Part shown: in pieces, positions 3 to 36,713 of the stretch | Layout: every line of letters starts with the position of its first letter | How positions within the stretch are numbered: the first letter of the stretch is position 1 | Assembly: GCA_002796305.1 (NCBI GenBank) | Contig: PCWZ01000043.1 | Span: 1-36,713, forward strand | Reading direction: 5' to 3' | DNA: 36,713 nt | Source: Deltaproteobacteria bacterium CG11_big_fil_rev_8_21_14_0_20_49_13 | GTDB lineage: Bacteria > UBA10199 > GCA-002796325 > 1-14-0-20-49-13 | Translations under genes and position numbers: made by a program | Notes under the pieces: generated by a model | What the model was told of the DNA's origin: nothing | Database searches by the model: none | Seen by the model: the letters and a program-made list of their open reading frames with translations, nothing else

Positions 3-170
3 TCGATAAAAAGCCTCTCGAAATATCTCGACGTATCTGCCGGAACAATACGGGACTGGGTTTATAAACGCCAGATCCCTTATTTGAAGGCGGGACGTCT
101 TGTCCGTTTTAATTTCTCTGACATCCGGTTGTGGCTGGAAAATGGAGGGAATGGATGTCAATTGAAATAA
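3..170 (+). CDS. Excisionase-like helix-turn-helix protein, 5' end outside the window
   Basis: The reading frame is open from the left edge and ends at the TAA at 168-170. About 55 residues are visible, with a MerR-like/HTH_17 pattern: a first helix containing SLSKYLDVSAGTIRDWV, then IPYLKAGRLVRF and a final DIRLWLE. Such small proteins are excisionases or directionality factors of integrative elements, or antitoxin-type regulators. The 3' end overlaps the integrase start at 155 by 16 bases, so the two are co-transcribed and probably translationally coupled. That pairing favours an excisionase role. The start codon and any N-terminal extension cannot be seen. The fold is clear; the exact role is inferred from the integrase next to it. 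Confidence 0.75.
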   Translation, partial: SIKSLSKYLDVSAGTIRDWVYKRQIPYLKAGRLVRFNFSDIRLWLENGGNGCQLK

Positions 171-1270
171 GGAAACGAGACAAAGGAACAGTGTATCGTG
201 TTCGCTGGAATCAAAACGGGTTAAAAGCGTGCAGGAGTTTTTCAAGATATCACGATGCCAAATCGTTTCAACAGGAAGTAAAAGAGAGCGACTCTGGTTT
301 TGAGGCTGTAAGCTTCACATTCCAGAAGGCCGCCGATGAATGGATCACCAAACATGCCGAGATAAGGAAAGAGCCGAGTAGTGTTTACATGGATAAAAAC
401 ATGTTGAAGCAGAACATCCTGCCTCATATCGGCAACCTTCGGCTTTGTAGCATTCAACCACGCCACCTAGAGAACTGGATCCATTTTTTGAAGCAGAAAA
501 AAAGGCTAAGCAATTCGACGATCAATAGAAATATTGATGTGATCAAAGCCATTTTTAGCTACTATCACAAGCGGCGCGCGATTTATTTCAATCCAGCATC
601 GGTGGTAGATAAACTAAGGATGGACACAAAGCCTTTCGACTTTTGGAGCGGTCAAGAAGTTCGTCTTTTTTTGGAATATGTAAAAAAGAAATATGAACAC
701 ACGGCACAACACTCCACCTATGTATTTTACGCACTAGCCCTGAACACAGGAGCGCGACTTGGCGAACTCTTGGCCTTAAGATGGTCGGATGTTGATTTTG
801 ACAATGGCTTGATCGCTATAAGTAAAACGTTTAGTGGCCATGTGAGAAAGGTCAAGAATACGACCAAGAGTCATAAGGTGCGGCATGTCCCGATCAATTC
901 AGCTCTAACGCCTGTGCTGGAAAAAGCCCAGAAAGGCCACCGAAATGACGAATTGGTAATCACATGGAGTGGCACAGTGATCGACCCTAATAATTTACGT
1001 CAACGTTGCTTCTACAACGATCTAAAAGAGAGCGGCGTAAAACGGATTCGCATTCATGATATGAGGCATACATTTGCAAGCCATTACATGATGAATGACG
1101 GAAACGTTTTCAAATTGCAGGCTATATTGGGCCATAGTAGCCTGAAAATGACCCAACGCTACACTCACTTATCGAAGACCTTTTTGATGGATAAGACGGA
1201 CGTTGTGAGCTTCACAGCGGAAGAGAACGTCATCAAGGTCGACTTTACGAAGCAAGCCGCCACCGCCTAA
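155..1270 (+). CDS. int: Tyrosine recombinase / phage-type integrase
   Basis: A 371-residue protein of usual integrase length. An N-terminal arm-binding region (about 1-50) is followed by a SAM-like core-binding domain (about 52-145) and a catalytic domain (about 165-345). The catalytic residues are visible: R201 in TGARLGELLALRW, H301 and R304 in HDMRHTF, H327 in LGHSS and the nucleophile Y336 in QRYTHLS. The start at 155 is chosen because a GGAGG lies at 144-148 with good spacing. A GTG at 131 in the same frame would add eight residues but has no better ribosome site. It overlaps the upstream HTH gene and ends 70 bases from the 3' end of a tRNA-Gly gene, the classic position for an element integrated at a tRNA. 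The rest of the element should lie to the left of the window. Confidence 0.95.
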   Translation: MSIEIRKRDKGTVYRVRWNQNGLKACRSFSRYHDAKSFQQEVKESDSGFEAVSFTFQKAADEWITKHAEIRKEPSSVYMDKNMLKQNILPHIGNLRLCSIQPRHLENWIHFLKQKKRLSNSTINRNIDVIKAIFSYYHKRRAIYFNPASVVDKLRMDTKPFDFWSGQEVRLFLEYVKKKYEHTAQHSTYVFYALALNTGARLGELLALRWSDVDFDNGLIAISKTFSGHVRKVKNTTKSHKVRHVPINSALTPVLEKAQKGHRNDELVITWSGTVIDPNNLRQRCFYNDLKESGVKRIRIHDMRHTFASHYMMNDGNVFKLQAILGHSSLKMTQRYTHLSKTFLMDKTDVVSFTAEENVIKVDFTKQAATA

Positions 1271-24646: not shown

Positions 24647-26341
24647 CTATTTTGAAAGGTCGTGAAACACGAGTTTCACCTGCGTCGAGAAATCAACGTC
24701 ATTATTGCCGCTCCTGAAACCATCGTTCTTCACGGCATCTATCCCGGCTTCGCCGTAGATATTCATCACTTTTGTTATCTTTTTCTGGCCGGCAAGTTTA
24801 AAGAGGAAATGATGTTCGGTAATACCTTTTTGGGAAACATATATGCCGTTATTATTACCGTTCGAATCAAAGGTAAGTCCGTATTGATCGCTTGATCTGT
24901 ATAGATATCTCGCATTCGCCCTTATGAACTCGTTCAAATTGAACTGATATGTAGAGGTTATGTATGCTGAATAAGTATCAGACCCGGCGTCATAGCCCAT
25001 GAATTTATCATCCAGTGCAAAACCATCCCTGTAAAAACCGTGTCTGTAGGAGAACTGGCCCGTATAGATAAATTCTCCCCGTAGAGAGAGCCTATTCTTT
25101 TTATCCAATCTTGGAAAATAGATCCCGCCAAGCCAGTTGGCATCATTTATAAGCATAAAACCATATTCCTGCTGTGTGTCTTCTAGTAGAACTTTGCCAT
25201 ACACCTCCATGCCAAGTAATGGTGGGATATGGAACGTGGCATCGGCGCCCATCAGGTGGTTGGAAGACGCACGACTATTCCCTGAATTAAAAAGAAACCC
25301 TATGAACTCGCCTATCGCGGTTGTAACACTAGGGTTAACGGCACCCTCTCCACCCATCATAACTGCATGGTCAAATCCAAGATCGAGCCAGTAGGCCGGT
25401 TGATAATCTACCCTGTATCCGGAAAGTATCGTGTTCTTTGGCTGATAATCACCGCCTAGAAGCGAAAAGAAGGCGGTAAAACGCCACTGGCCAAGGTGCT
25501 TAAGTACCCACGGAAGCCTGAATGTAGAGGGCGTTGTGAGCCTTATCATGTCCTGTGCATGTGCGTTGTTGCTGAAAAGAAGGCTGTATTCACCCGGACC
25601 CCAGATAAGCGCATCGCGACCTACCTGAAGCTCAAAGTTCTTATATCCCGTCTTAACATATCCGCGGTAGAGCGTAATACCGCCGTTCTCGATATCGCCG
25701 GAACGCAAATAGAAGAGAGGCTGAACATAAAATGAAAAATATGGTGTTGCGGAAAGCCGGTGAGATGTATCGAAGTAGAAGTTGCTATATTTTTCATAGC
25801 GCTGGCCGTCTTTATAATCCAAAAGAGGCTGAACAGTACCAGATGTAGTGCCAAGCCCGCTCGGCATGGCCTCTTCCTGCTGATTCGTGGCGGTCCATGA
25901 AAAACCTGCTGTATCTATCGGTCTAAATTCCAAACTCCTTCCCTTGTTGCCATCGATCAATGCGATATCCGCACTAAATTCATTCTCAAGCTCACGCATT
26001 ATAGGCTCAACTCCCTCATCGGGGGCCTCGATAAGCCTTCCCCTTGCCTCAACAACAAGTCTTGCGACAGTAAACCTCGAGAGCGGCCTTTGGTTGGGGC
26101 TATAGGTCTTTATGAGCTTGCGAGATGCGAGCTTAGCCAGATAGCTGTAGACAACATCATCGTACACGTTCACATCTACCTGCTGAATGGCAAATGATGT
26201 GGCAGATATGATAAGTATAATTGTCATTGCGAACGCAAGTGAAGCAATCCAGTTAACGCACTGGATCGCCACGCCCCTTCGGGGCTCGCGATGACATGTA
26301 GATCGCTTCGCTACGCTCGCAATGACATGAGTTTTACGCAT
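24647..26341 (-). CDS. Wzi-like capsule assembly / outer-membrane barrel protein
   Basis: 564 residues from an ATG that overlaps the MMPL stop (ATGCGTAA) and has GGAG just upstream. The N-terminal helical part (RPLSRFTVARLVVEARGRLIE, about 85-105) and the barrel with FELQVGRDALIWGPGEYSLLFSNN match the Caps_assemb_Wzi family, whose E. coli member anchors capsule at the cell surface. The chain ends in beta strands. Between MRKT and the hydrophobic end of the signal (TIILIISATSFA) lies a palindromic repeat translated in frame as about 35 residues. An internal ATG at 26227 could give MTIILIISATSFA. It is the third gene of the PAP2-MMPL-Wzi operon and is paralogous to 29881-31452. Confidence 0.8.
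   Translation of the reverse strand: MRKTHVIASVAKRSTCHREPRRGVAIQCVNWIASLAFAMTIILIISATSFAIQQVDVNVYDDVVYSYLAKLASRKLIKTYSPNQRPLSRFTVARLVVEARGRLIEAPDEGVEPIMRELENEFSADIALIDGNKGRSLEFRPIDTAGFSWTATNQQEEAMPSGLGTTSGTVQPLLDYKDGQRYEKYSNFYFDTSHRLSATPYFSFYVQPLFYLRSGDIENGGITLYRGYVKTGYKNFELQVGRDALIWGPGEYSLLFSNNAHAQDMIRLTTPSTFRLPWVLKHLGQWRFTAFFSLLGGDYQPKNTILSGYRVDYQPAYWLDLGFDHAVMMGGEGAVNPSVTTAIGEFIGFLFNSGNSRASSNHLMGADATFHIPPLLGMEVYGKVLLEDTQQEYGFMLINDANWLGGIYFPRLDKKNRLSLRGEFIYTGQFSYRHGFYRDGFALDDKFMGYDAGSDTYSAYITSTYQFNLNEFIRANARYLYRSSDQYGLTFDSNGNNNGIYVSQKGITEHHFLFKLAGQKKITKVMNIYGEAGIDAVKNDGFRSGNNDVDFSTQVKLVFHDLSK
26223..26328. repeat. Composite GTCATTGCGAG palindromic repeats inside the Wzi-like signal peptide
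   Basis: A full palindromic unit (26223-26295: GTCATTGCGA...GCAATCCAG, centre TTAACGCA, CTGGATCGCC...GCGATGAC) adjoins a second, half-size copy (26300-26325). The whole insert stays in frame with the minus-strand gene. Confidence 0.85.
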
Positions 26342-28805
26342 CAGATCTCCTCTTATTGAACAAGACCATCAGCGCGGGGGCAAGGATCACCGCAGCACTG
26401 ATGCATGTCAGCTCTCCTATGATCGCGACCCATCCGAACGACGCAAGCGCCTGATTGTTGGCGACGATAAGCACGGAATAGCCAATGATCGTGGTGAGCG
26501 AACAGAGCATGACGGCAAGCCCAGTATGCCTGAGCGAATGTTCAACGTTCTCCATTTTATCGCGCACAAGACGCATCACCACATTTATCGCGTAATCGAC
26601 ACCTATCCCGAAGGTCAGTGGGAGCGCAATAAAGTTGAAGAAGTTAAGTTTGATCTTCAGGAGTGCCGCAAGCCCAAGCATCGTGATTATGCCCACAACA
26701 AGGCAGATGATTATCACCCAGGAGGACCGCCAGTGCCTGACGACAAAGCCTACAAAGATGATCACCATGATAAAAGAGGCCAGGGTCAGAATGGGGGCCT
26801 CGTCCCTTATGGCCTTCACAAGGTCCGAAAATATCATCGAGGCGCCTGCCGCGTGAAAGATGCGGCCGTCTTTAAGCGTGAATCTCTTTATCGTGTCCGA
26901 AAAACGTGTCAGATTCCTGCCGTCGGAAAGGAGCATGCCGGGCCTCGGGTTCACAAAGACAACGACACCCTTGTTCTTCTTCAGGTCCTCAAAATGTTTG
27001 GTGAGGGCATAGGGAATATCGTCGATCGTTAAAAGGTCCCCTTTGAGGGATTCTCTGATAGGATCGACCTTGTCCTTTAGATCGCCTTTAAGGCCGTTGA
27101 TATACTCCTCATTCTTTGCAAATAATATCCTGAACTTTTCAAACTTCGGTATCTTCTTTTCCTGATCCTTGGGAAGAAGGCTGTATATCGAATAGCACGA
27201 ACCGACGCGGCGTTCCGACTCCGGAAGCGCCATGTTCTTTTCGTTTATGACATCACAGACAAGCGGCGCATCTTCTTTTTTATCCAAGAGGACAACGGCA
27301 GGGGTCATCGAGTCCTTAAAGAGCTTGCTGACACGTTTTTCCAGGGCCTCGGTCCCGGAGGCGACGCTTGTCTTGTTCCTAAGCTTCGTAAAATCGTATT
27401 CGATGGCATCGGGAACGAATTGGGCGACAAGCAAGACCGAAAGGACCGCGATAGTTATGGAGACGGCCAGGACCTTTCCGGGGGAATGAACCACGCACGA
27501 CGTAAGCTTGGCGAAGACCGCACTCTTTCTTGGAGACTCGGCCCCTTCTTTCACGGTCTCCCTGACGCGCTCGGTTATTAACGTAAATATGGGAAGAAGA
27601 ATGAATGTGCCCAGCCAGCAGAGCATGACTCCGACGGCCCCTATCATCCCGAACTGGTTGAGCCCCTTTATCCTCGCCAAAAGGAGGACGGCAAAGGCGA
27701 CGGCAGTGGTCGATGCGGCAAGGAATGTGGAGCTTAATGTGTTCCTGACCGATATCTTCATGGCGTCGGCCGGAATGCGGCCCTTCCTTCGCTCTTCGAC
27801 ATAGCGAGCCATTAGAATAATGCCGTAATTGATACCGGTTCCGAGGATTATGGAGCCCAAAAATGCCGTCTGGCTGTTCAAGTAACCGATGGAAAGATAG
27901 GTAAATGCGAACGTCCACGAAAGCGCGATTATGAGCGTTGTGCCAAGCAGGAACACTATCCTGATGCGCAGGAAAAAGATACTGATAGCAAGTGCGACCA
28001 GAAAAATGCAAAGGAGCGCGGTCGAGACCACGTCCTTTTTGAGCGTATCGTACTCCTCCACCGTGCTCTTAACGTTGCCGCAAAAACCGATCTTCATTGA
28101 AGGGTCATAAGAGTAAGGATCAAGACCGGCAACTTCCTGCTCCACGTTGTTTATCAGCCTGCGGGCGTTCTCAACAGAGAGGCTCTGCTCATAGGGCCTT
28201 ATTATCATGATGAGCATGCGGCCCCACTCACCTCCGTAATAGTTCTCAAAGGCCTGAATGGGGGCGGTGTAGTTCTTCTGGTTCCGGCCCTTTATCTCAT
28301 CTATCTGGGCGGTCAGGGGGTCCTCGTCCGCAAAGTCTATAAAGAGGCCCGACTTGGTGAGCTTCTCGTAATCGATCCTTCGCTGGATGCTTCCGTAGAG
28401 CTTGTCTATGTCTTCAATGTTTATGTAATATAGAGTATATTTTTCGTAGAACTTCTTTATGTCATCAGATTTATAATCAAGGTAACGGATGGTCCCTTCG
28501 GGCAGCTTTTCAATCCTTGAAGCAAGGTCATCCATGAACTTTTTATTGGCATTAACATTGGGGCTTTCGGCGACAACTATGAGGCTTCCTACCCCGCCTA
28601 TGCGCTCAAGGGTGGCGTTAAGGTCCTTGACGCTTTGGTAATTATCAGGAAGGAGCTCTTTTAAGTCCCCCTTTATCGATAACCTGGACGACAGGTAGAA
28701 CGAAGCGATCGATGTGAGAAGAACCGCCGCAAGCGCGAGAAAAAGGTGCCTTTGAACGAGGTCTATGTATGCGGAAAAACCGCGGTGTATTCTATCGGAT
28801 ATCAT
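26334..28805 (-). CDS. RND/MMPL-family exporter
   Basis: 823 residues in two homologous halves. Each half has one N-terminal helix, a large periplasmic domain and a block of five helices, as in MMPL/HpnN lipid exporters. Signatures include LGSIILGTGINYGIILMARYVEE (near 330) and the corresponding LPLTFGIGVDYAINVVMRLV in the second half (near 735). GD...ELLP in KGDLKELLPDNYQS is the usual start of the first periplasmic domain. It is driven by the proton gradient and typically exports lipids or hopanoids. It overlaps the PAP2 gene (14 bases) and the Wzi-like gene (8 bases), so the three are coupled and may move a lipid or polysaccharide to the surface. Confidence 0.88.
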   Translation of the reverse strand: MISDRIHRGFSAYIDLVQRHLFLALAAVLLTSIASFYLSSRLSIKGDLKELLPDNYQSVKDLNATLERIGGVGSLIVVAESPNVNANKKFMDDLASRIEKLPEGTIRYLDYKSDDIKKFYEKYTLYYINIEDIDKLYGSIQRRIDYEKLTKSGLFIDFADEDPLTAQIDEIKGRNQKNYTAPIQAFENYYGGEWGRMLIMIIRPYEQSLSVENARRLINNVEQEVAGLDPYSYDPSMKIGFCGNVKSTVEEYDTLKKDVVSTALLCIFLVALAISIFFLRIRIVFLLGTTLIIALSWTFAFTYLSIGYLNSQTAFLGSIILGTGINYGIILMARYVEERRKGRIPADAMKISVRNTLSSTFLAASTTAVAFAVLLLARIKGLNQFGMIGAVGVMLCWLGTFILLPIFTLITERVRETVKEGAESPRKSAVFAKLTSCVVHSPGKVLAVSITIAVLSVLLVAQFVPDAIEYDFTKLRNKTSVASGTEALEKRVSKLFKDSMTPAVVLLDKKEDAPLVCDVINEKNMALPESERRVGSCYSIYSLLPKDQEKKIPKFEKFRILFAKNEEYINGLKGDLKDKVDPIRESLKGDLLTIDDIPYALTKHFEDLKKNKGVVVFVNPRPGMLLSDGRNLTRFSDTIKRFTLKDGRIFHAAGASMIFSDLVKAIRDEAPILTLASFIMVIIFVGFVVRHWRSSWVIIICLVVGIITMLGLAALLKIKLNFFNFIALPLTFGIGVDYAINVVMRLVRDKMENVEHSLRHTGLAVMLCSLTTIIGYSVLIVANNQALASFGWVAIIGELTCISAAVILAPALMVLFNKRRSDA

Positions 28806-29865
28806 AACGGGCCCTGAAACCGTGCCAGGCTTTTAGAACATATTCCGAAAGCGCGTAGGCCACACCCGCCACAAAAAGCCCTGCAAAGATATCGATGACC
28901 CAGTGGTGGCGCAGATAGACGGTGGAGAACCAGAGCCCAAGGACGAGCGGTATGTATATCAGCCAGATGGTGCCGAATATTCGATTAATACTCCTGAACT
29001 TCCACGCAAAGAAAAGCGCGACCGCAGAAATGCCGACGTGCAGGCTTGGAAATGCCCCGCACGGAACGACGGAGAGGCTGTCCCAGGCGCTCTGCAACCG
29101 GTCGAAGATATAGGGACCGTGAAGGACGTGCGGATTCGTGTAGAGTTCGGTTATAAAATAGCGCGGAGGCGATGTCGGCCAGGCAACATAACCTATGAAA
29201 CCCATAAGGAACGTGAATGTTACGGCCAGGGCCATCTCCCTGAACTCGGAACGCCTGTCTTCATGAGAAAGAAAGAACATAAGAACGAGCGGGAAGACGA
29301 AATAGAGGGCATAGCAAAAGGCCATGATGTCGGTAAGTATGGGCGAATAGATCTTCTGTGCCCAGATGGTTGGTTCAACGCCAAAAATAGCGATGTCCCA
29401 GTGGTAAAAGACCCCGGCAAAGTCGTGTTTATAGAAAAGTTTGCTCAGGTCGTGAAGGTTTTCGTAGATGAACGTGACCAAGAGGAAGGGAAGCCAGTCG
29501 CGAAGGATGTGATGCGGAAGCTTTCTCTCCTCCGGCCTGAACCTGGCAAGGATAGAGTGATAGATAATAAGGGTCAAGGTGATGCCGACCGGCAGACCCA
29601 GGGACGCCTGAAAGAACCTTATGTGACCGCCGGCAAAGATTATGGTAACAAGGAGGACGAGGGTCATAACGACCGCAAGCATGAGGTCAGGGCCCGCAAG
29701 GGCTATAAAGGCAAGGATTCTTTTAAATAACCACCTGGAGTGGGACGTCAGGATACCCTTTTCTTCGTTCAAGGATGTAGCATGAGTTGTGGTGCCATTT
29801 GCCATAGAAGTGGCGGCTTTTGTATCTGTTTTGGCGCTTTTTTGCAATGACTTTTGACAAATCAT
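28792..29865 (-). CDS. PAP2-superfamily membrane phosphatase/phosphotransferase
   Basis: About 357 residues from the ATG at 29865. The frame extends to 29913 but would then overlap the divergent gene at 29881; 29805 is another possible start and none has a good ribosome site. Six membrane helices are present. The PAP2 motifs are GAFPSLHVG (about 275) and YLRHHWVIDIFAG (about 325), giving the catalytic H and D. The long loop PTSPPRYFITELY resembles PAP2_3/inositol-phosphoryl-ceramide-synthase-like proteins, which transfer phospho-head groups. It is the first gene of the PAP2-MMPL-Wzi operon and probably makes or trims the lipid handled by the exporter. Confidence 0.85.
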   Translation of the reverse strand: MICQKSLQKSAKTDTKAATSMANGTTTHATSLNEEKGILTSHSRWLFKRILAFIALAGPDLMLAVVMTLVLLVTIIFAGGHIRFFQASLGLPVGITLTLIIYHSILARFRPEERKLPHHILRDWLPFLLVTFIYENLHDLSKLFYKHDFAGVFYHWDIAIFGVEPTIWAQKIYSPILTDIMAFCYALYFVFPLVLMFFLSHEDRRSEFREMALAVTFTFLMGFIGYVAWPTSPPRYFITELYTNPHVLHGPYIFDRLQSAWDSLSVVPCGAFPSLHVGISAVALFFAWKFRSINRIFGTIWLIYIPLVLGLWFSTVYLRHHWVIDIFAGLFVAGVAYALSEYVLKAWHGFRARYDIR

Positions 29866-29880
29866 TGAAATTAAACTACA

Positions 29881-31452
29881 TTGTCGCCCACCTTGAAACC
29901 ACTTTTTAAACACCTTCTAACCACCTTTAAACTCCTTCTGTTCCTCATGCTTCCTCCGGCCATGGGATATGCCCAAGTTTCAAATAACATCCCTACAAAT
30001 GACTATTCTTACGCCCTGATAGACAAATTAGCCGCCGTGGGCCTTATTAAAACCCCCATCACCGCCCAACGCCCATGGACCAGAGATTATGCGGCGCGGT
30101 TGGTCACGGAAGCCATGTCCAACAGGGATGAGCTGATCAAGGGCCTCGAGTCGCCGGATAGACCTGAAAGGGGTGATTACAAGAGTTACAACAAACTCCT
30201 CGCCCAAAAAAGATTCGTGGATGCGATACTAAAGGAACTTTCGGCCAAATATGGCGATGGATTGCATGTCATTGCGAGCCCAAAGGGCGAAGCAATCCCA
30301 TGCGATCAACTACATTATAATGACATTCAATTTCATCCACTCTCATCCGCCTCCCTCACCTACACATACCTGAACAACTCCCCGCTTCCGGTCGGCGCGG
30401 CCCCTCCCAACCGGATAAATGACCAATTCTACCCTCTGGCCGCCAACCAAGAGGGCCGCCATTATGAAGAAGGCAGCAACTACTACATCGAGACCGAAAG
30501 TTCCCTCACATTTCCAAAATATTTCTCCGCATACCTGCGCCCCCAGTTCCAGTTCATCTATACAAGCACAAGTGCCGGCGACGAGGCCCATGCCTACATC
30601 CAGAACCTCTATGTCAAGACAGGGATAAATAGTTTTGAGATAGAGGTTGGACGAGATCAACTTGTATGGGGAAATGCATTGCATGGGGGCTTAATGTTCT
30701 CCGATAACCCAAGGCCTCTGGACATGGTCAAGTTATCGACATCAAAACCGGTAAAGATACTTGTCCCGGTGGAGGCAACGCTCATTGCGGCAAATATGGG
30801 ACCATCTTACGATCCCGAAGATGCTTGGGTTTGGGGCGGCAAAATAAATGTAAGCCCGTTCGAATGGCTGGACCTCGGTTTTGCCGACATCACAGAAAGC
30901 AAGGCAGGTCATTCGTCAGTGAACCGGATAGGATTTGACGGAAAGCTGGTTTTAAATGGACTACGCGGGGTAAATCTTTACGGGGAGGGATATATTGAGA
31001 ATAGAGATGATGAAAAGTTCGGCTGGCTTGCCGGTGTCTATTTCCCAAGGTTTGACTTCATAGGAAAGTGGTCGCTACGGGTTGAATATGAGAACATCGC
31101 CGCGAACACTTATACGAGCTCTAAGTACCCATCGGGCTGGGCGCTAAATAATTTGTTCATCGGAAGCATAATGGGACCTGATTCACAAAAATTCACCGCA
31201 TCAGCCGATTACAACTTCACGCCGCAGACTAAATTAGGGCTTGCCGGAGGTTACATGGAAAGAAAAGGGGTAAATAACGAATCTCATATCTTTAATGCCT
31301 ACACATTTGCCATCCCCTTCCAAGATAACCGACTTAACTTCTATTCATCCCTCGGCTGGGACTACGTAACAAATAGTAATTTTACATCAGGAAACAACAA
31401 AGCCGACCTGATGTTCCAGGCCGGCCTCAAAATGAACTTTCCGGAATTTTAA
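29881..31452 (+). CDS. Second Wzi-like outer-membrane barrel protein
   Basis: About 523 residues from a TTG at 29881; a TTG at 29893 is the alternative and no ATG precedes the signal. The signal peptide ends PPAMGYAQ. The N-terminal helical repeat (SYALIDKLAAVGLIKTP, RPWTRDYAARLVTEA) parallels that of the gene at 24647. The barrel has NSFEIEVGRDQLVWGNALHGGLMFSDN, the family's characteristic strand-loop. The chain ends KMNFPEF with a C-terminal Phe. Around residue 130 a palindromic repeat is translated as HVIASPKGEAIP, absent from the paralogue. It is divergent from the PAP2 operon, with little space for a promoter. Confidence 0.78.
   Translation: MSPTLKPLFKHLLTTFKLLLFLMLPPAMGYAQVSNNIPTNDYSYALIDKLAAVGLIKTPITAQRPWTRDYAARLVTEAMSNRDELIKGLESPDRPERGDYKSYNKLLAQKRFVDAILKELSAKYGDGLHVIASPKGEAIPCDQLHYNDIQFHPLSSASLTYTYLNNSPLPVGAAPPNRINDQFYPLAANQEGRHYEEGSNYYIETESSLTFPKYFSAYLRPQFQFIYTSTSAGDEAHAYIQNLYVKTGINSFEIEVGRDQLVWGNALHGGLMFSDNPRPLDMVKLSTSKPVKILVPVEATLIAANMGPSYDPEDAWVWGGKINVSPFEWLDLGFADITESKAGHSSVNRIGFDGKLVLNGLRGVNLYGEGYIENRDDEKFGWLAGVYFPRFDFIGKWSLRVEYENIAANTYTSSKYPSGWALNNLFIGSIMGPDSQKFTASADYNFTPQTKLGLAGGYMERKGVNNESHIFNAYTFAIPFQDNRLNFYSSLGWDYVTNSNFTSGNNKADLMFQAGLKMNFPEF
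30268..30298. repeat. In-frame GTCATTGCGAG repeat within the second Wzi-like gene
   Basis: GTCATTGCGAGCCC, short spacer, GGGCGAAGCAATCC. This is a half unit of the repeat family seen at 2693 and 26223, read here as HVIASPKGEAIP. The flanks carry TGCATG and CATGCG. Confidence 0.8.
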
Positions 31453-31499: not shown

Positions 31500-34400
31500 T
31501 CAAACTCCGCGCCTTTCGTACACAATCATCGCCGCGATCGTGTCCGAAACGTGCGATGAGTCATGGCAATATCGACCACTGTTTTTTTTCGTTTCCGAAA
31601 ATCCATGATCGGTCAAAAGAACGAGAGGGCGGCCGGATCCTATCAACGGCAAAATATCTTTTATAACGCCGCTGACTTCCGCAACCGCCGAATCCATCAA
31701 TTGATGCAACGGCTGCGTCGTTGCATGCAAGAGGCGGTCTATTATTCCAACTCGCAGCCACATTGAGCCTTTACCCGCTTCCTCCTTGATCCGTTTCCTT
31801 ACCTCCAGCGTTTCAGCGTCGGCAAAATAGCAAATGCCCCGATTTTTAAGGATCGCCGATATTGCATCCGCATCCGACGTGCCAAAGAAGGCCCTCTGCC
31901 ACGAGCCAGTATCTGCGCCATTAATGCGGCACCAATTTTCACTAGCGACATTCATTCCATCGCTCTTTCTGATAAATTCGCCTAGTTGGGCCACGATATC
32001 CCATCTGGCAGCGTCCAGAAAGAGGAACACGGCATTCTGATGCTTTTCAAATACGTGGCTAAATTGCTCTTTCCATTCCGGAAGCCCGGCAAACATGCGA
32101 TCGCGAACATCTGTCTGTCGCAACATGGCATTACGCAACTTTTCCACGATTTGCATCGACGGAAAATCGTTCCGGTAATGGCTCTCCGCCAAAAAAGAAA
32201 TCGCGTATTCGCGCCGCGACTCTGAACGAATCAACTCGCCAACCGGCGCATCGAAAAATGGCTTTGCGACGATAACGGCCGCATCGCATATTTTTTTGAT
32301 GTCGCCAAACTGGCAATCTACCGCGGTTGCTTCGGGCCTCCATCCATCTATCAAATGATTTATCAGATGTTTCGCGGCTTCCATGGCAAACGTCCGGCAG
32401 CACCGCTCGCGCTTGAGTATTTGCAATATTTTATCGCCGCTGGCGTTTACAAGGCCGGCCAGATCCGCCATTTTCTTGAGCCGCGTTCCATCAACAACAA
32501 GTTCTGCCCCGGAGAAGCAAGCAACCGTTCCGCTTGGTATTACAAGGGCTAATCTCGCGCTCAAATCATCCAGTTCGTGATCCTTGATCCACACCGCGAG
32601 CAGAGAATCGGCCATGGCGGCAACGTCTCCGTCCCCTTCGTTCATGTCTATCACAACATCGCCTTTTTCATAATTCCCAAGCCATTTTTCAAATATTTCG
32701 CGAACCAGCGAAGGAGGCAATTTTCTGCCGGAAAGCCTCTCTGAAAGATCGCCGACCTTTCTTTTGACGATTGTCACTTCGCGTTTGAGCGCCTCGTTCA
32801 AAAGAAACGCCGCATCGGGAGCCAAAAGTTCCACGAATGCGCCCATCTCCAAATTTTCGCGCAATTTGTGAAATATGCTCTCAAGCGTTTCCGACTTCGT
32901 CCGGTCTAAATCGCGCAACGCCGCTATTCGTGAAACAAGTTTTTCCAGAATAGCCGGGCTTGAAAGCGCCAAAAACGCCTCTTTCAGGCCGCCTTCCGCC
33001 ATTTTTACGATATCTGCGGCATTTGCAAACTTAATCATCTTGCCCGGCATGAACCCGCAGTCGCAATGCGGCTTCAGCCGCAAAAACGGCGTGGCCGCTC
33101 TGTCACAATAGAGCGACAACGCCGCATCAATGCGCGCCTTGATCGAATCAAACCCGTCCACAAGGTGAATTCCAGAAATGCCACTTGCAAGCGAAAGCGC
33201 ACGCATTTTCTTCATCTCAAACAGCTGTTTGAGCTCCTTAAAGCGCTCCTTGGGAAACGCGCGCGCATGCTCATCGACATACCATAAAGAATAAGATCCC
33301 AAAAAAGCGTCAAACGCGGAAAAAATGTCGTCTACCTTGTTATGCAAAACAACTTCAGTAAGGCTCTCCAGAAGACTTTTTAAATCCGCAAGCTTCTGCG
33401 CGGCCGGCGGCGGCATAACAGTCCCCTCCGGAATCCCCCTCAAATAATCCGCAATGCGAATCACCCGCTCTGAATCGCCAACCGCAAATTTTTCAATCGC
33501 ACCAGCCGTTTTCAATATTCCGCCGAGCTCCGGCGGCGAGGCCGAAAGATACTGCGCAAGCCCCTTTGCCGCCCCCTTCGAATCTTCAACGCCGCCCATC
33601 GCTTCAAGACCGCCATTAATAACGGCCTTCGCCTTTGCAAAATCAAAACCGTCGAAAATAGGATATTTGCTGATGGCTGAAAGAGCAGGAAGCGTTTCCA
33701 AAGAAAATCTTTTCATCAGGTCGCGAGCTTCCAACAATCTTCCCCACGCTTCCCTCTGCGAAGAGAGCGAAAAAGATGCGCTCTCGATGCCTTCGGTAAG
33801 ATACCCATCCAAAAAAAGGCGTTTTTTGAGATCTGCCGGAAGAAGCTCGCCGGTGTTGATCTCGTCGGCCTCTTCAACATGCGAAAAGCCGACGATGCCG
33901 GACGGAATGCGCCGGCCTCCTTTTTTGATGTCGACAATGCCTGTGTGGACAAGCGACACGATGAGCAGTTCGGCCATCTCTTTGGTAAGGCCGTATTCTC
34001 CCCGCCTGAGGTTGCGCCTCAATGCTCCCATCTTGCCGTCCTTTTTGATCATGCTCAAAACATCGCTCGCCAGGGATGAAAAAGAAGGATCCGCCTGCAT
34101 GACAAAAGACGGGCCCTGAACGCGCGCGAGCCCCATCGGGATCAGCACACCTTCTATCATCGTGCGGCTGTTGTTCTTGCGCGCTGCAGCCATGGTAACG
34201 CGTCCGGGCGCAATAATTGCTTCTATCAGCGGCATAAGCGTCCGGCGCGACACAAATTCCACCTCCGGAGCCACCTCCAAAAATTTAGGATGGATTCCCT
34301 TAAGCATTTCAACGACCGGCCTCGCCGCAAACCGTTCCATTAAGCCTGCGGGATTGCCGGAAGCGAACGCACGCTCTTCTGTATGGCCGCCCCAGACAAA

Positions 34401-36470
34401 CTTCCCTTTTTTAAATCCCGACTCGACTATGCCGGCCAGCCTTGTTTTTTCGTCATCAAGCTTGCGAACGGCGTCTTCCTTGACCGCCATTTCAACGCTT
34501 GCATCTTCCGACAAAATCTTCACAGCGTAATATTTTTGCATCTCTGAAAGATCGGTCTTATCAAAATCAGGAATCCAGTATACGGCTCCATCCGGAATCG
34601 GTTCATTTGTCGGCAGCTTAAAATCCGGCGGGCAGAGGACAATCGCGAAATCACGGTCTGCGCCGACGATCTTTTGCTCAACCTCCGCAAAAGAGAGCGA
34701 TTCCGACCATAAAATGCCGCCCCGCCTCTGCGTTCCTCTCCATTGAATAATCAACTCGTTGGCGGCTCCATTTAACGCTTCGCGGACGGGAATTTCCGAC
34801 GAAACTTCGCCGAATACCGTCCTAATTGCGCGCTTGTCGGATGACGGCAGAGAAGATAAAACGCGGTCGATCTCCTTTTGCAGAAGGTTTTTGGCATTGC
34901 GTTCTAAAGAAATTTCAAAGACGCGTTTTCCGGCCTCCTTCTCATGGCTCGCATGGAGAAAAAGCGACGCCCTAAGGAGAGGTTCCAAAATGACGTCCGA
35001 CAGATATTGCTCGTTCGCCTTCGACGACACCTCGCTTGGGGCCATCATGAGCATCCCGACAAGTTCGGAAACGCTCTTAGGCCTTTCGAGTTCGGCAATT
35101 TTATTTAAAATTAAAATATCGCAGGCGCGATTCGCAAGCGAAAGGTCGCCTTCGTCCGCGAATGTCTTTTTGGCGGCGTGTTGCATATCGCGCCGCACAA
35201 GCGTATCGAACTCCGCAAATCGTCCGTCCTCTCTGATTCTGTCCCTGAAATGATCGTAGATAGCATCTACGGTAACGAGGGTTTTGTCGGGCCCGTCAAG
35301 AAGACCCTTTACTCCCCTCTTCGCATCGCCCTTCACTTGTGAAACGATGAAATCTACAACACCCCTGTGGGCGGAAAGAAGGCTTTTAAGCCCCTCCAAA
35401 TAACGGATAGTCGAGGGATGAATCGGATAAATGCGGTAAAATTCCTCGAAATCAATTTTAAACTGCGGAATGGTTTCGCTGTACTTCGCCCATACCTCGC
35501 GGATGCGCTCCCTTGCCCCCTCTTTTTTGCGTATCAGCCTTCCATCTATCAAACCCTTGATATGGGCCTCATCAAGGGACATTTTTACGGGATACCTGTC
35601 CTTGATCTTTGCTATGACGTCGCGGGCTATATCGCCAGTCTGTTCGATGGCCTCCTGCAGCGAAGCTACAATCCAAAGCTTTTCCGACAGCGCCAACTCA
35701 CCCATAAGCTGGAGATAGCGCGCGTCTTCGTTGAGCGCTACGCGCGACGGCTTCGACTTCAAAAATTCCGAAAGCTCGTCGATAACGATAACGACCCCTT
35801 CGTAACCGAGCGATTTTGCCGACTTCACAATTTGCGAAAGGAGCGTTGCCGGCGCTGTTTCCGGCATTTCAGGGCAATCCGGGTGGGCCTTAATATATCC
35901 CCACGCCGAGACAGCCGCCTTATCGGGATCTTCCTTTAATTTTTCCCATGTCGGCAGGCCGCGGGAGATAAAATATTCGTCCATGCCGGCCGAATCGACC
36001 GGCCTCACAAAGCTATCGACATAGTCTATGAAGCGGGACCTTTTTGCAAAATTCGCCTCGGCGCCCAACGCGCGAACATTCCTCTCCGCCTCGGCAAGAA
36101 CCGCGTCTTCTAAGCGCCTGTCGTTCCGGACATTCACCAGCGAAACGCGGCAGGGCATGAATCGCTTTTCCATTGCGGCGCTAGCCAGCGGATTTTCGGT
36201 CCGGCAGGCCACTTCGCCGGAAAGGACAAGCGAAACGTACGACAAAAAGTGCGATTTCCCCGAACCGTACGGCCCGACAAGAAAATGGCCCCTTCCTTTT
36301 CCGTCTCTGACAGACTGCGCGATCAGGCTAAGATTCCGCTCCACCTGGCGCGTGAGAACAAACTCGCCAACCACACCTTCGCGCTTAGTTCGATCCGCTG
36401 CGTCGTCTAGGCGGACGACCGTCTCAACCACCGGCACATCAATTATATCGCGCATTAACATGTGATACAC
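31500..36470 (-). CDS. Giant PglY/BrxC-like ATPase fused to a C-terminal PglZ-like domain
   Basis: 1656 residues (1651 from the ATG at 36455, MRDIIDVPVVE, which resembles the LRDxIDxPE start of PglY/DUF6079 proteins). The P-loop ATPase has Walker A GPYGSGKSHFL (66-76) and Walker B VVIVIDELSEFLK (227-239). A long helical middle carries an HCDCGF cysteine pair near 1137. The last 176 residues match the PglZ alkaline-phosphatase superfamily: VFLFLDAARWD (D1486, R1489, D1491), GADTGSW (T1521 at the nucleophile position) and LLTDHGFSE (D1621, H1622), then H1636 and H1640 in GRYCHDSSH. In BREX and Pgl phage defence these are normally two separate core proteins. It starts one base after the preceding gene, so the two are co-transcribed. 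No methyltransferase is in the window. The fusion is seen in the sequence; the defence role is inferred. Confidence 0.82.
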   Translation of the reverse strand: MYHMLMRDIIDVPVVETVVRLDDAADRTKREGVVGEFVLTRQVERNLSLIAQSVRDGKGRGHFLVGPYGSGKSHFLSYVSLVLSGEVACRTENPLASAAMEKRFMPCRVSLVNVRNDRRLEDAVLAEAERNVRALGAEANFAKRSRFIDYVDSFVRPVDSAGMDEYFISRGLPTWEKLKEDPDKAAVSAWGYIKAHPDCPEMPETAPATLLSQIVKSAKSLGYEGVVIVIDELSEFLKSKPSRVALNEDARYLQLMGELALSEKLWIVASLQEAIEQTGDIARDVIAKIKDRYPVKMSLDEAHIKGLIDGRLIRKKEGARERIREVWAKYSETIPQFKIDFEEFYRIYPIHPSTIRYLEGLKSLLSAHRGVVDFIVSQVKGDAKRGVKGLLDGPDKTLVTVDAIYDHFRDRIREDGRFAEFDTLVRRDMQHAAKKTFADEGDLSLANRACDILILNKIAELERPKSVSELVGMLMMAPSEVSSKANEQYLSDVILEPLLRASLFLHASHEKEAGKRVFEISLERNAKNLLQKEIDRVLSSLPSSDKRAIRTVFGEVSSEIPVREALNGAANELIIQWRGTQRRGGILWSESLSFAEVEQKIVGADRDFAIVLCPPDFKLPTNEPIPDGAVYWIPDFDKTDLSEMQKYYAVKILSEDASVEMAVKEDAVRKLDDEKTRLAGIVESGFKKGKFVWGGHTEERAFASGNPAGLMERFAARPVVEMLKGIHPKFLEVAPEVEFVSRRTLMPLIEAIIAPGRVTMAAARKNNSRTMIEGVLIPMGLARVQGPSFVMQADPSFSSLASDVLSMIKKDGKMGALRRNLRRGEYGLTKEMAELLIVSLVHTGIVDIKKGGRRIPSGIVGFSHVEEADEINTGELLPADLKKRLFLDGYLTEGIESASFSLSSQREAWGRLLEARDLMKRFSLETLPALSAISKYPIFDGFDFAKAKAVINGGLEAMGGVEDSKGAAKGLAQYLSASPPELGGILKTAGAIEKFAVGDSERVIRIADYLRGIPEGTVMPPPAAQKLADLKSLLESLTEVVLHNKVDDIFSAFDAFLGSYSLWYVDEHARAFPKERFKELKQLFEMKKMRALSLASGISGIHLVDGFDSIKARIDAALSLYCDRAATPFLRLKPHCDCGFMPGKMIKFANAADIVKMAEGGLKEAFLALSSPAILEKLVSRIAALRDLDRTKSETLESIFHKLRENLEMGAFVELLAPDAAFLLNEALKREVTIVKRKVGDLSERLSGRKLPPSLVREIFEKWLGNYEKGDVVIDMNEGDGDVAAMADSLLAVWIKDHELDDLSARLALVIPSGTVACFSGAELVVDGTRLKKMADLAGLVNASGDKILQILKRERCCRTFAMEAAKHLINHLIDGWRPEATAVDCQFGDIKKICDAAVIVAKPFFDAPVGELIRSESRREYAISFLAESHYRNDFPSMQIVEKLRNAMLRQTDVRDRMFAGLPEWKEQFSHVFEKHQNAVFLFLDAARWDIVAQLGEFIRKSDGMNVASENWCRINGADTGSWQRAFFGTSDADAISAILKNRGICYFADAETLEVRKRIKEEAGKGSMWLRVGIIDRLLHATTQPLHQLMDSAVAEVSGVIKDILPLIGSGRPLVLLTDHGFSETKKNSGRYCHDSSHVSDTIAAMIVYERRGV

Positions 36471-36471
36471 A

Positions 36472-36713
36472 TTAGACCTCCAGCAACCATCTAATCACGT
36501 TCGCATGAACAGCGTTATGCTTTTTGAGGATATCTGCAGAAATGCTATTATTCAACGTCAGGATTAGATTCTGACCGTTTTTGAGATATTTATCAACCAA
36601 CAAAAAAGCGCCCAACTCTCTGGCGCAATTCTGTTCCTCAAGATCGGCGCAAACCTGATATTTGTCAAAAAACCCGTTTTCAACATCCAAAATAAAATCG
36701 ATCTCCCTCCCCC
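36472..36713 (-). CDS. C-terminal end of a probable DUF4143-type ATPase, cut by the window edge
   Basis: The frame is open to the right edge (visible from about 36711) and stops at 36472-36474, one base before the PglY-PglZ gene. About 79 residues are visible: REIDFILDVENGFF, KYQVCADLEEQNCARELGAF, and a closing IRWLLEV. This matches the nuclease-like C-terminal segment of archaeal-type AAA ATPases with DUF4143 (E-hydrophobic-DF pattern, QVC, REL, W-LL end). Such ATPases are common in genomic islands. A TTG at 36690 could be used as a start but would leave an odd fragment; the edge truncation is more likely. Same operon as the large fusion gene. Confidence 0.55.
   Translation of the reverse strand, partial: GREIDFILDVENGFFDKYQVCADLEEQNCARELGAFLLVDKYLKNGQNLILTLNNSISADILKKHNAVHANVIRWLLEV

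What the first reader, a model, noticed from the sequence alone, without database searches (positions are those of the whole stretch)
31500..36470. A single protein joins a PglY/BrxC-like ATPase to a PglZ-like phosphatase domain
Seen: Walker A (GPYGSGKS) and Walker B (VIDELSEF) near the N-terminus and a complete PglZ-like metal-site set (DxxRxD, TDHG, two later His) in the last 176 residues of one 1656-residue frame. Known: BrxC/PglY and PglZ are separate core proteins of BREX and Pgl phage-defence systems. Inference: this is a compact, fused BREX-like core, or a new class that lacks the usual methyltransferase nearby. The PglZ part is short, only the catalytic core. This is my best candidate for an undescribed system.
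Basis: partly seen in the sequence, partly recalled or inferred. Interest (0 to 1): 0.82.

Follow-up and report, generated by a model that had tools for sequence, protein, structure and literature searches.

The report
BrxC-like ATPase fused to PglZ nuclease
One large bacterial protein joins two parts, an ATP-driven DNA motor and a DNA-cutting enzyme, that the well-known anti-phage system BREX keeps as separate proteins; the fused form is an old family of its own in at least ten bacterial phyla, tied to a small partner protein and often a DNA helicase, and I found no published description of it.

Summary
Window 36470-31500 (minus strand) encodes one 1656-aa protein. Its N-terminal part is a BrxC/PglY-type (DUF6079) ORC/Cdc6-like AAA+ ATPase, and its last ~200 residues are a minimal PglZ domain. 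Profiles, an AlphaFold2 model with pLDDT 90, and alignment with PorX and BREX PglZ all support the PglZ assignment. The fusion is not a local accident. About 40 homologous loci in at least 10 phyla form a clade separate from BREX BrxC (99/99 support). All 32 full-length members keep every catalytic residue of the PglZ domain, the Walker motifs, and a CxC zinc-like motif that BREX BrxC lacks. It is not BREX: no methyltransferase, BrxA, BrxB or BrxL, and no defence-island neighbours. The family has its own partners: a TPR protein (17 of 20 fusion genomes among 395 Desulfobacterota, adjacent in 31 of 41 loci), a long RecQ helicase (only in fusion genomes, 8 of 8) and a SWIM/SNF2 helicase. The window copy lacks an adjacent TPR gene; its contig ends 1.1 kb upstream. 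Best reading: a self-contained ATPase-nuclease for DNA processing, more likely foreign-DNA restriction than repair, not decided here. No description was found in the searchable open literature.

The parts
31500..36470 (-). Fusion gene, 1656 aa: BrxC/DUF6079-type AAA+ ATPase with C-terminal PglZ domain
35210..36470 (-). ORC/Cdc6-like AAA+ ATPase region, about aa 1-420: Walker A 66-73, Walker B 231-232, invariant R292 and R369
   Evidence: Pfam PF19557 and PADLOC BrxC; AF2 model of aa 1-1180 with top Foldseek hits BREX BrxC 9zll/9zdx, E 3e-12; residue counts
32931..35209 (-). aa 421-1180: helical and alpha+beta middle region with the motif C1122...P-x-C1136-x-C1138-G-F (zinc-like)
   Evidence: cysteines invariant in 32 of 32 fusions; motif found in 1 of 52 BrxC-type proteins outside the fusion clade, and that one (L030) is not a BREX BrxC
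32151..32930 (-). aa 1181-1440: poorly conserved linker, not modelled
31503..32150 (-). Minimal PglZ domain, aa 1441-1656: D1486, T1521, D1578, H1582, D1621, H1622, H1636
   Evidence: A5 alignment, AF2 pLDDT 90, Foldseek PorX 4e-8 and BREX PglZ 1e-4, profile match to PorX/PglZ with catalytic T and H aligned
36472..36713 (-). 3' end of an upstream gene on the same strand, stop codon one base before the fusion's GTG: AAA_14/DUF4143 ATPase. It continues beyond the window to the end of the 37588-base contig and holds a short run of N

Best explanation
The protein is a self-contained ATPase-nuclease. An ORC/Cdc6-like AAA+ ATPase of the BrxC type assembles on DNA in an ATP-dependent way, and its own C-terminal PglZ domain, a two-metal phosphodiesterase/nuclease with Thr1521 as nucleophile, cuts nucleic acid there. 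Covalent fusion replaces the BrxB-mediated docking by which BREX BrxC holds PglZ. A TPR protein acts as adaptor or target sensor, and a RecQ or SWIM/SNF2 helicase, when present, remodels or feeds the DNA. The most likely purpose is restriction of foreign or aberrant DNA without a methylation mark. Shown here: the domains, intact active sites, family monophyly and partner genes. Inferred: DNA as substrate, oligomerisation, the TPR role and the defensive purpose.
For: Domain identity of both ends by profile, fold and catalytic-residue alignment. PglZ catalytic residues invariant in 32 homologues. Fusion clade 99/99, separate from 50 BREX BrxC. None of the BREX BrxC loci scanned has a fused PglZ; where PglZ was found it is a separate ORF. 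TPR partner: adjacent in 31 of 41 loci, often overlapping by 4-35 bases; in 395 Desulfobacterota genomes 17 genomes have both, against 20 with the fusion and 19 with the TPR protein. The two TPR-only genomes (G254, G440) are contigs cut where the fusion would follow. Long RecQ occurs only in fusion genomes, 8 of 8. The two members in the window's phylum fall in different subclades, as expected of horizontal transfer. [quoted passage not shown] BrxC binds DNA and the BrxB-PglZ complex (PMC13326643).
Against: No defence-island context: neighbours are metabolic or housekeeping genes. In part of the Desulfobacterota the TPR gene or whole operon sits stably near the EF-G gene, and the operonic RecQ is the only RecQ match in four of four such genomes searched, which would suit repair. 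No self/non-self mark is evident. The window copy has no adjacent TPR gene, and none better than a generic TPR lipoprotein was found in its genome. No activity was tested.
Confidence: 0.5

Rival explanations
1. Genome maintenance: the fusion, TPR protein and RecQ/SNF2 helicase form an accessory DNA-repair or recombination module in which the helicase unwinds, the AAA+ ring organises and PglZ trims or resects the host's own DNA.
For: RecQ is the only RecQ match in G188, G288, G216 and G453 and is embedded between the TPR gene and the fusion; neighbours are housekeeping genes; conserved EF-G synteny in one clade; the AAA+ part resembles ORC/Cdc6.
Against: Patchy: 20 of 395 Desulfobacterota genomes and 2 of 46 in the window's phylum. 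Most fusion loci have no RecQ. Phylogeny suggests transfer between phyla. Both domains' closest kin, apart from PorX, are anti-phage proteins.
Confidence: 0.33
2. Nucleotide-signal degrader: the PglZ domain hydrolyses cyclic or linear oligonucleotide messengers, as PorX does, and the ATPase and TPR parts gate it.
For: PorX is the best match by sequence profile and by fold; BREX PglZ also cleaves cyclic oligonucleotides in vitro (PMC12205998).
Against: No response-regulator, CD-NTase or effector neighbours recur; the recurrent partners are DNA helicases.
Confidence: 0.12
3. A reduced BREX: a compact remnant of a BREX core whose other genes lie elsewhere or on the missing sequence beyond the contig end.
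For: BrxC and PglZ are both BREX core proteins; the window's contig ends 1.1 kb upstream.
Against: No full-length BREX-type PglZ in the genome by Pfam PglZ. No methyltransferase among conserved neighbours of about 40 loci. The clade is separate from BrxC. The PglZ N-terminal portion present in separate BREX PglZ proteins is missing.
Confidence: 0.05

Closest known systems
BREX BrxC/PglY (DUF6079, PF19557)
   Same: N-terminal ORC/Cdc6-like AAA+ ATPase and following region; top fold match and profile match
   Different: Separate clade; carries a C-terminal PglZ domain and the C..PxCxCGF motif, both absent from BREX BrxC
BREX PglZ (PF08665)
   Same: Metal-binding catalytic core with T and H aligned to T538/H741
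   Different: Only about 200 aa instead of roughly 750-1005 aa; no N-terminal portion; not a separate gene
PorX PglZ domain (type IX secretion response regulator)
   Same: Best structural and profile match for the catalytic domain; also a PglZ domain fused to a regulatory N-terminus
   Different: PorX has a CheY receiver domain, not an AAA+ ATPase, and acts in secretion signalling
BREX-related (BR, DUF499) and BREX-related capture (BRC) systems of Rakesh and Krishnan 2026 (PMC12839542)
   Same: Reuse of BrxC-like ATPase and/or PglZ with helicases or translocases outside canonical BREX
   Different: There the ATPase and PglZ are separate proteins, with a methyltransferase (BR) or HerA/FtsK and a STAND NTPase (BRC); the text has no TPR or SWIM term and its fusion passages shown describe no BrxC-PglZ fusion

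Membership tests
BREX | BrxC/PglY-type AAA+ ATPase | tested here: met
BREX | PglZ as an encoded protein or domain | tested here: met
   catalytic core present as a fused domain:
BREX | PglX/BrxX adenine methyltransferase in the locus | tested here: not met
   none in the window genes scanned with Pfam; no methyltransferase conserved among neighbours of about 40 loci. The contig ends 1.1 kb upstream, so the window alone is incomplete
BREX | BrxA, BrxB or BrxL in the locus | tested here: not met
   no recurrent neighbour of those kinds
BREX | ATPase falls within the BrxC clade | tested here: not met
   fusion proteins on one side of a 99/99 branch, BrxC on the other
PglZ domain (alkaline phosphatase superfamily) | Two-metal ligand set and Thr nucleophile | tested here: met
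   D1486, T1521, D1578, H1582, D1621, H1622, H1636 invariant in 32 of 32, aligned to PorX T272 and H500
PglZ domain (alkaline phosphatase superfamily) | Metal-dependent nuclease or phosphodiesterase activity | not testable with these tools
   needs purified protein
Anti-phage defence system | Defence-island context | tested here: not met
   no PADLOC family matched more than 2 of 122 neighbours; Pfam context metabolic; no matched random background was run
Anti-phage defence system | Patchy, horizontally spread distribution | tested here: met
   20 of 395 and 2 of 46 genomes; same-phylum members in different subclades
Anti-phage defence system | Protection against phage | not testable with these tools
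   needs plaque assays

The most novel reading that the evidence does not exclude
A previously undescribed DNA-processing system found in at least ten phyla. Its core is an obligate pair, a TPR protein and a BrxC-type ATPase fused to a minimal PglZ nuclease, with an optional RecQ or SWIM/SNF2 helicase; it acts on DNA without a methyltransferase.
Probability: 0.6. Interest if true: 0.75.

Novelty: new variant of a known kind. Interest (0 to 1): 0.62.

Why it matters
How BREX couples its ATPase to its nuclease is still open. A natural single-chain version without methyltransferase, BrxA, BrxB or BrxL would be the simplest material in which to test whether BrxC-type ATPases control PglZ directly. 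If the family is defensive, it is a BREX-related system not listed in the one 2026 survey read here; if it is a repair module, it gives BrxC and PglZ a non-defence role.

Tried and rejected
Single-sequence scan of genome contigs found no relative; the two-sequence alignment was needed. Viral contigs and phages gave nothing and plasmids only weak BrxC/DUF6079 matches, so a phage or plasmid origin was dropped. The SNF2 helicase seen next to G044's copy was first thought to be a core component; it is adjacent in only 4 loci, has orthologues elsewhere in other fusion genomes and is absent from the window's genome. The best TPR hit in the window's genome is a generic TPR lipoprotein, so it was not accepted as the partner. 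L030 (1302 aa) was considered as an unfused two-gene version, but its next gene is not PglZ; it is kept as an outlier. The organism could not be named from the data held.

Full report
The gene. Window 36470-31500, minus strand, is one open frame of 1656 codons. It starts with GTG, five bases after GGAGGT and one base after the stop of an upstream AAA_14/DUF4143 ATPase gene on the same strand. The contig is 37588 bases long, so only about 1.1 kb upstream of the gene is known, and that stretch holds a short run of N.

The two ends. The N-terminus matches DUF6079 (7e-35), PADLOC BrxC (7e-28) and NCBIfam BrxC (8e-22). The C-terminus matches PglZ weakly by itself (1e-4 and 3e-4). With 19 homologues the C-terminal profile reaches PorX at 1e-9 and BREX PglZ at 1e-7 in the PDB. 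The domain folds with pLDDT 90 and its best solved matches are the PglZ domain of PorX (4e-8) and BREX PglZ 9zn5 (1e-4). The model of residues 1-1180 (pLDDT 86) matches BREX BrxC 9zll/9zdx at 3e-12, then ORC/Cdc6 proteins.

Active sites. In 32 full-length homologues the Walker motifs and D1486, T1521, D1578, H1582, D1621, H1622, G1623 and H1636 are conserved; of these only Walker position S70 varies, in two sequences. T1521 and H1636 align with the PorX residues that the BREX PglZ paper equates with T538 and H741 (PMC12205998). That paper shows PglZ to be a metal-dependent nuclease that nicks and linearises DNA and cleaves cyclic oligonucleotides, with T538A abolishing nuclease activity.

A family, not an accident. 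A genome-contig scan with two sequences gave about 20 homologues in Thermodesulfobacteriota, Myxococcota, Acidobacteriota, Planctomycetota, Actinomycetota, Bacillota, Fibrobacterota, Nitrospirota, Pseudomonadota and Wallbacteria. Within 395 genomes of one phylum (that of L023, Desulfobacterota/Thermodesulfobacteriota) 20 have the gene; in the window's own phylum 2 of 46 do. On a tree of the ATPase region, 31 fusion proteins and 50 BREX BrxC proteins lie on opposite sides of a 99/99 branch. None of the BREX BrxC loci has a fused PglZ; where the profile found PglZ there, it is a separate ORF of about 750-1005 aa. A motif C..PxCxCGF is invariant in its cysteines in the fusions and found in 1 of 52 BrxC-type proteins outside the clade, the outlier L030. 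The two members of the window's phylum are in different subclades, which suggests transfer.

Partners. A TPR protein of about 320 aa, usually ending in LYGR, is adjacent in 31 of 41 loci. It usually lies upstream on the same strand, often overlapping the fusion by 4-35 bases; in one subclade it is divergent. Of the other ten loci, L012, L140 and L148 are cut by contig ends and L014 has only 0.9 kb upstream; four have the TPR gene elsewhere in the genome (G136, G140, G173, G365); L027 and the window remain. In the 395 genomes, 17 have both genes, against 20 with the fusion and 19 with the TPR protein (hypergeometric 7e-25; shared ancestry inflates this). The two TPR-only genomes end at contig edges. 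A long RecQ helicase with DEAD, RecQ zinc, RQC and HRDC domains lies between the TPR gene and the fusion in Desulfobacterota loci, and is found in 8 of 395 genomes, all with the fusion. A SWIM/SNF2 helicase is adjacent in four loci; L015 has all four genes in a row.

Context. No methyltransferase, BrxA, BrxB or BrxL recurs. Of 122 neighbours scanned, no PADLOC family matched more than two, and Pfam shows metabolic genes. The window itself holds thiC, thiG, coaE, RF3, TamA/TamB-like, Wzi, MMPL and PAP2 genes. This does not support a defence island. I had no matched random-background scan, so enrichment is judged absent, not measured.

What it most likely does. Inference: the AAA+ part assembles on DNA and controls its own PglZ nuclease; the TPR protein guides it; helicases prepare the DNA. 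BREX BrxC docks BrxB-PglZ (PMC13326643), so the fusion would replace BrxB. Foreign-DNA restriction is favoured by homology and patchy spread; repair by the RecQ link, by housekeeping context and by EF-G synteny in one clade. I put these at about 0.5 and 0.33.

Known or new. The 2026 BREX survey (PMC12839542) read here describes separate ATPase and PglZ proteins, BR systems with DUF499 and BRC systems with HerA; the terms TPR, tetratrico- and SWIM do not occur in it and the fusion passages shown do not describe this fusion. Literature searches found no other description. Preprints and most subscription papers were not searchable, so priority is uncertain.

Noticed in passing
window 36472-36713 and contig G000:C43 to 37588: AAA_14/DUF4143 ATPase gene directly upstream of the fusion, interrupted by a run of N and cut by the contig end; whether it belongs to the system is unknown.
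   Followed up: partly
window 131-1270: Tyrosine integrase gene at the far end of the window, about 30 kb from the fusion, beside a GAF/PAS protein (1573-2487).
   Followed up: no
window 24647-31452: Two Wzi-like capsule-assembly proteins (24647-26341 minus, 29881-31452 plus) flank an MMPL transporter and a PAP2 phosphatase; the plus-strand Wzi gene is convergent with the fusion.
   Followed up: no
L015:9377-12052, L016:6924-9575, L007:7356-10073: The SWIM/SNF2 helicase is 62-75% identical between these loci from two phyla, while the fusion proteins of the same loci share only about 19-25% identity with the window protein.
   Followed up: partly
L030:1892-5800: Halanaerobiaceae 1302-aa relative with the C..PxCxCGF motif but no PglZ domain, beside genes of unassigned function; possibly another branch of BrxC-like systems.
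   Followed up: partly
L148:1777-6168: Fusion gene of G241 is split by an in-frame TAA after about 390 codons; a pseudogene or an assembly error.
   Followed up: no
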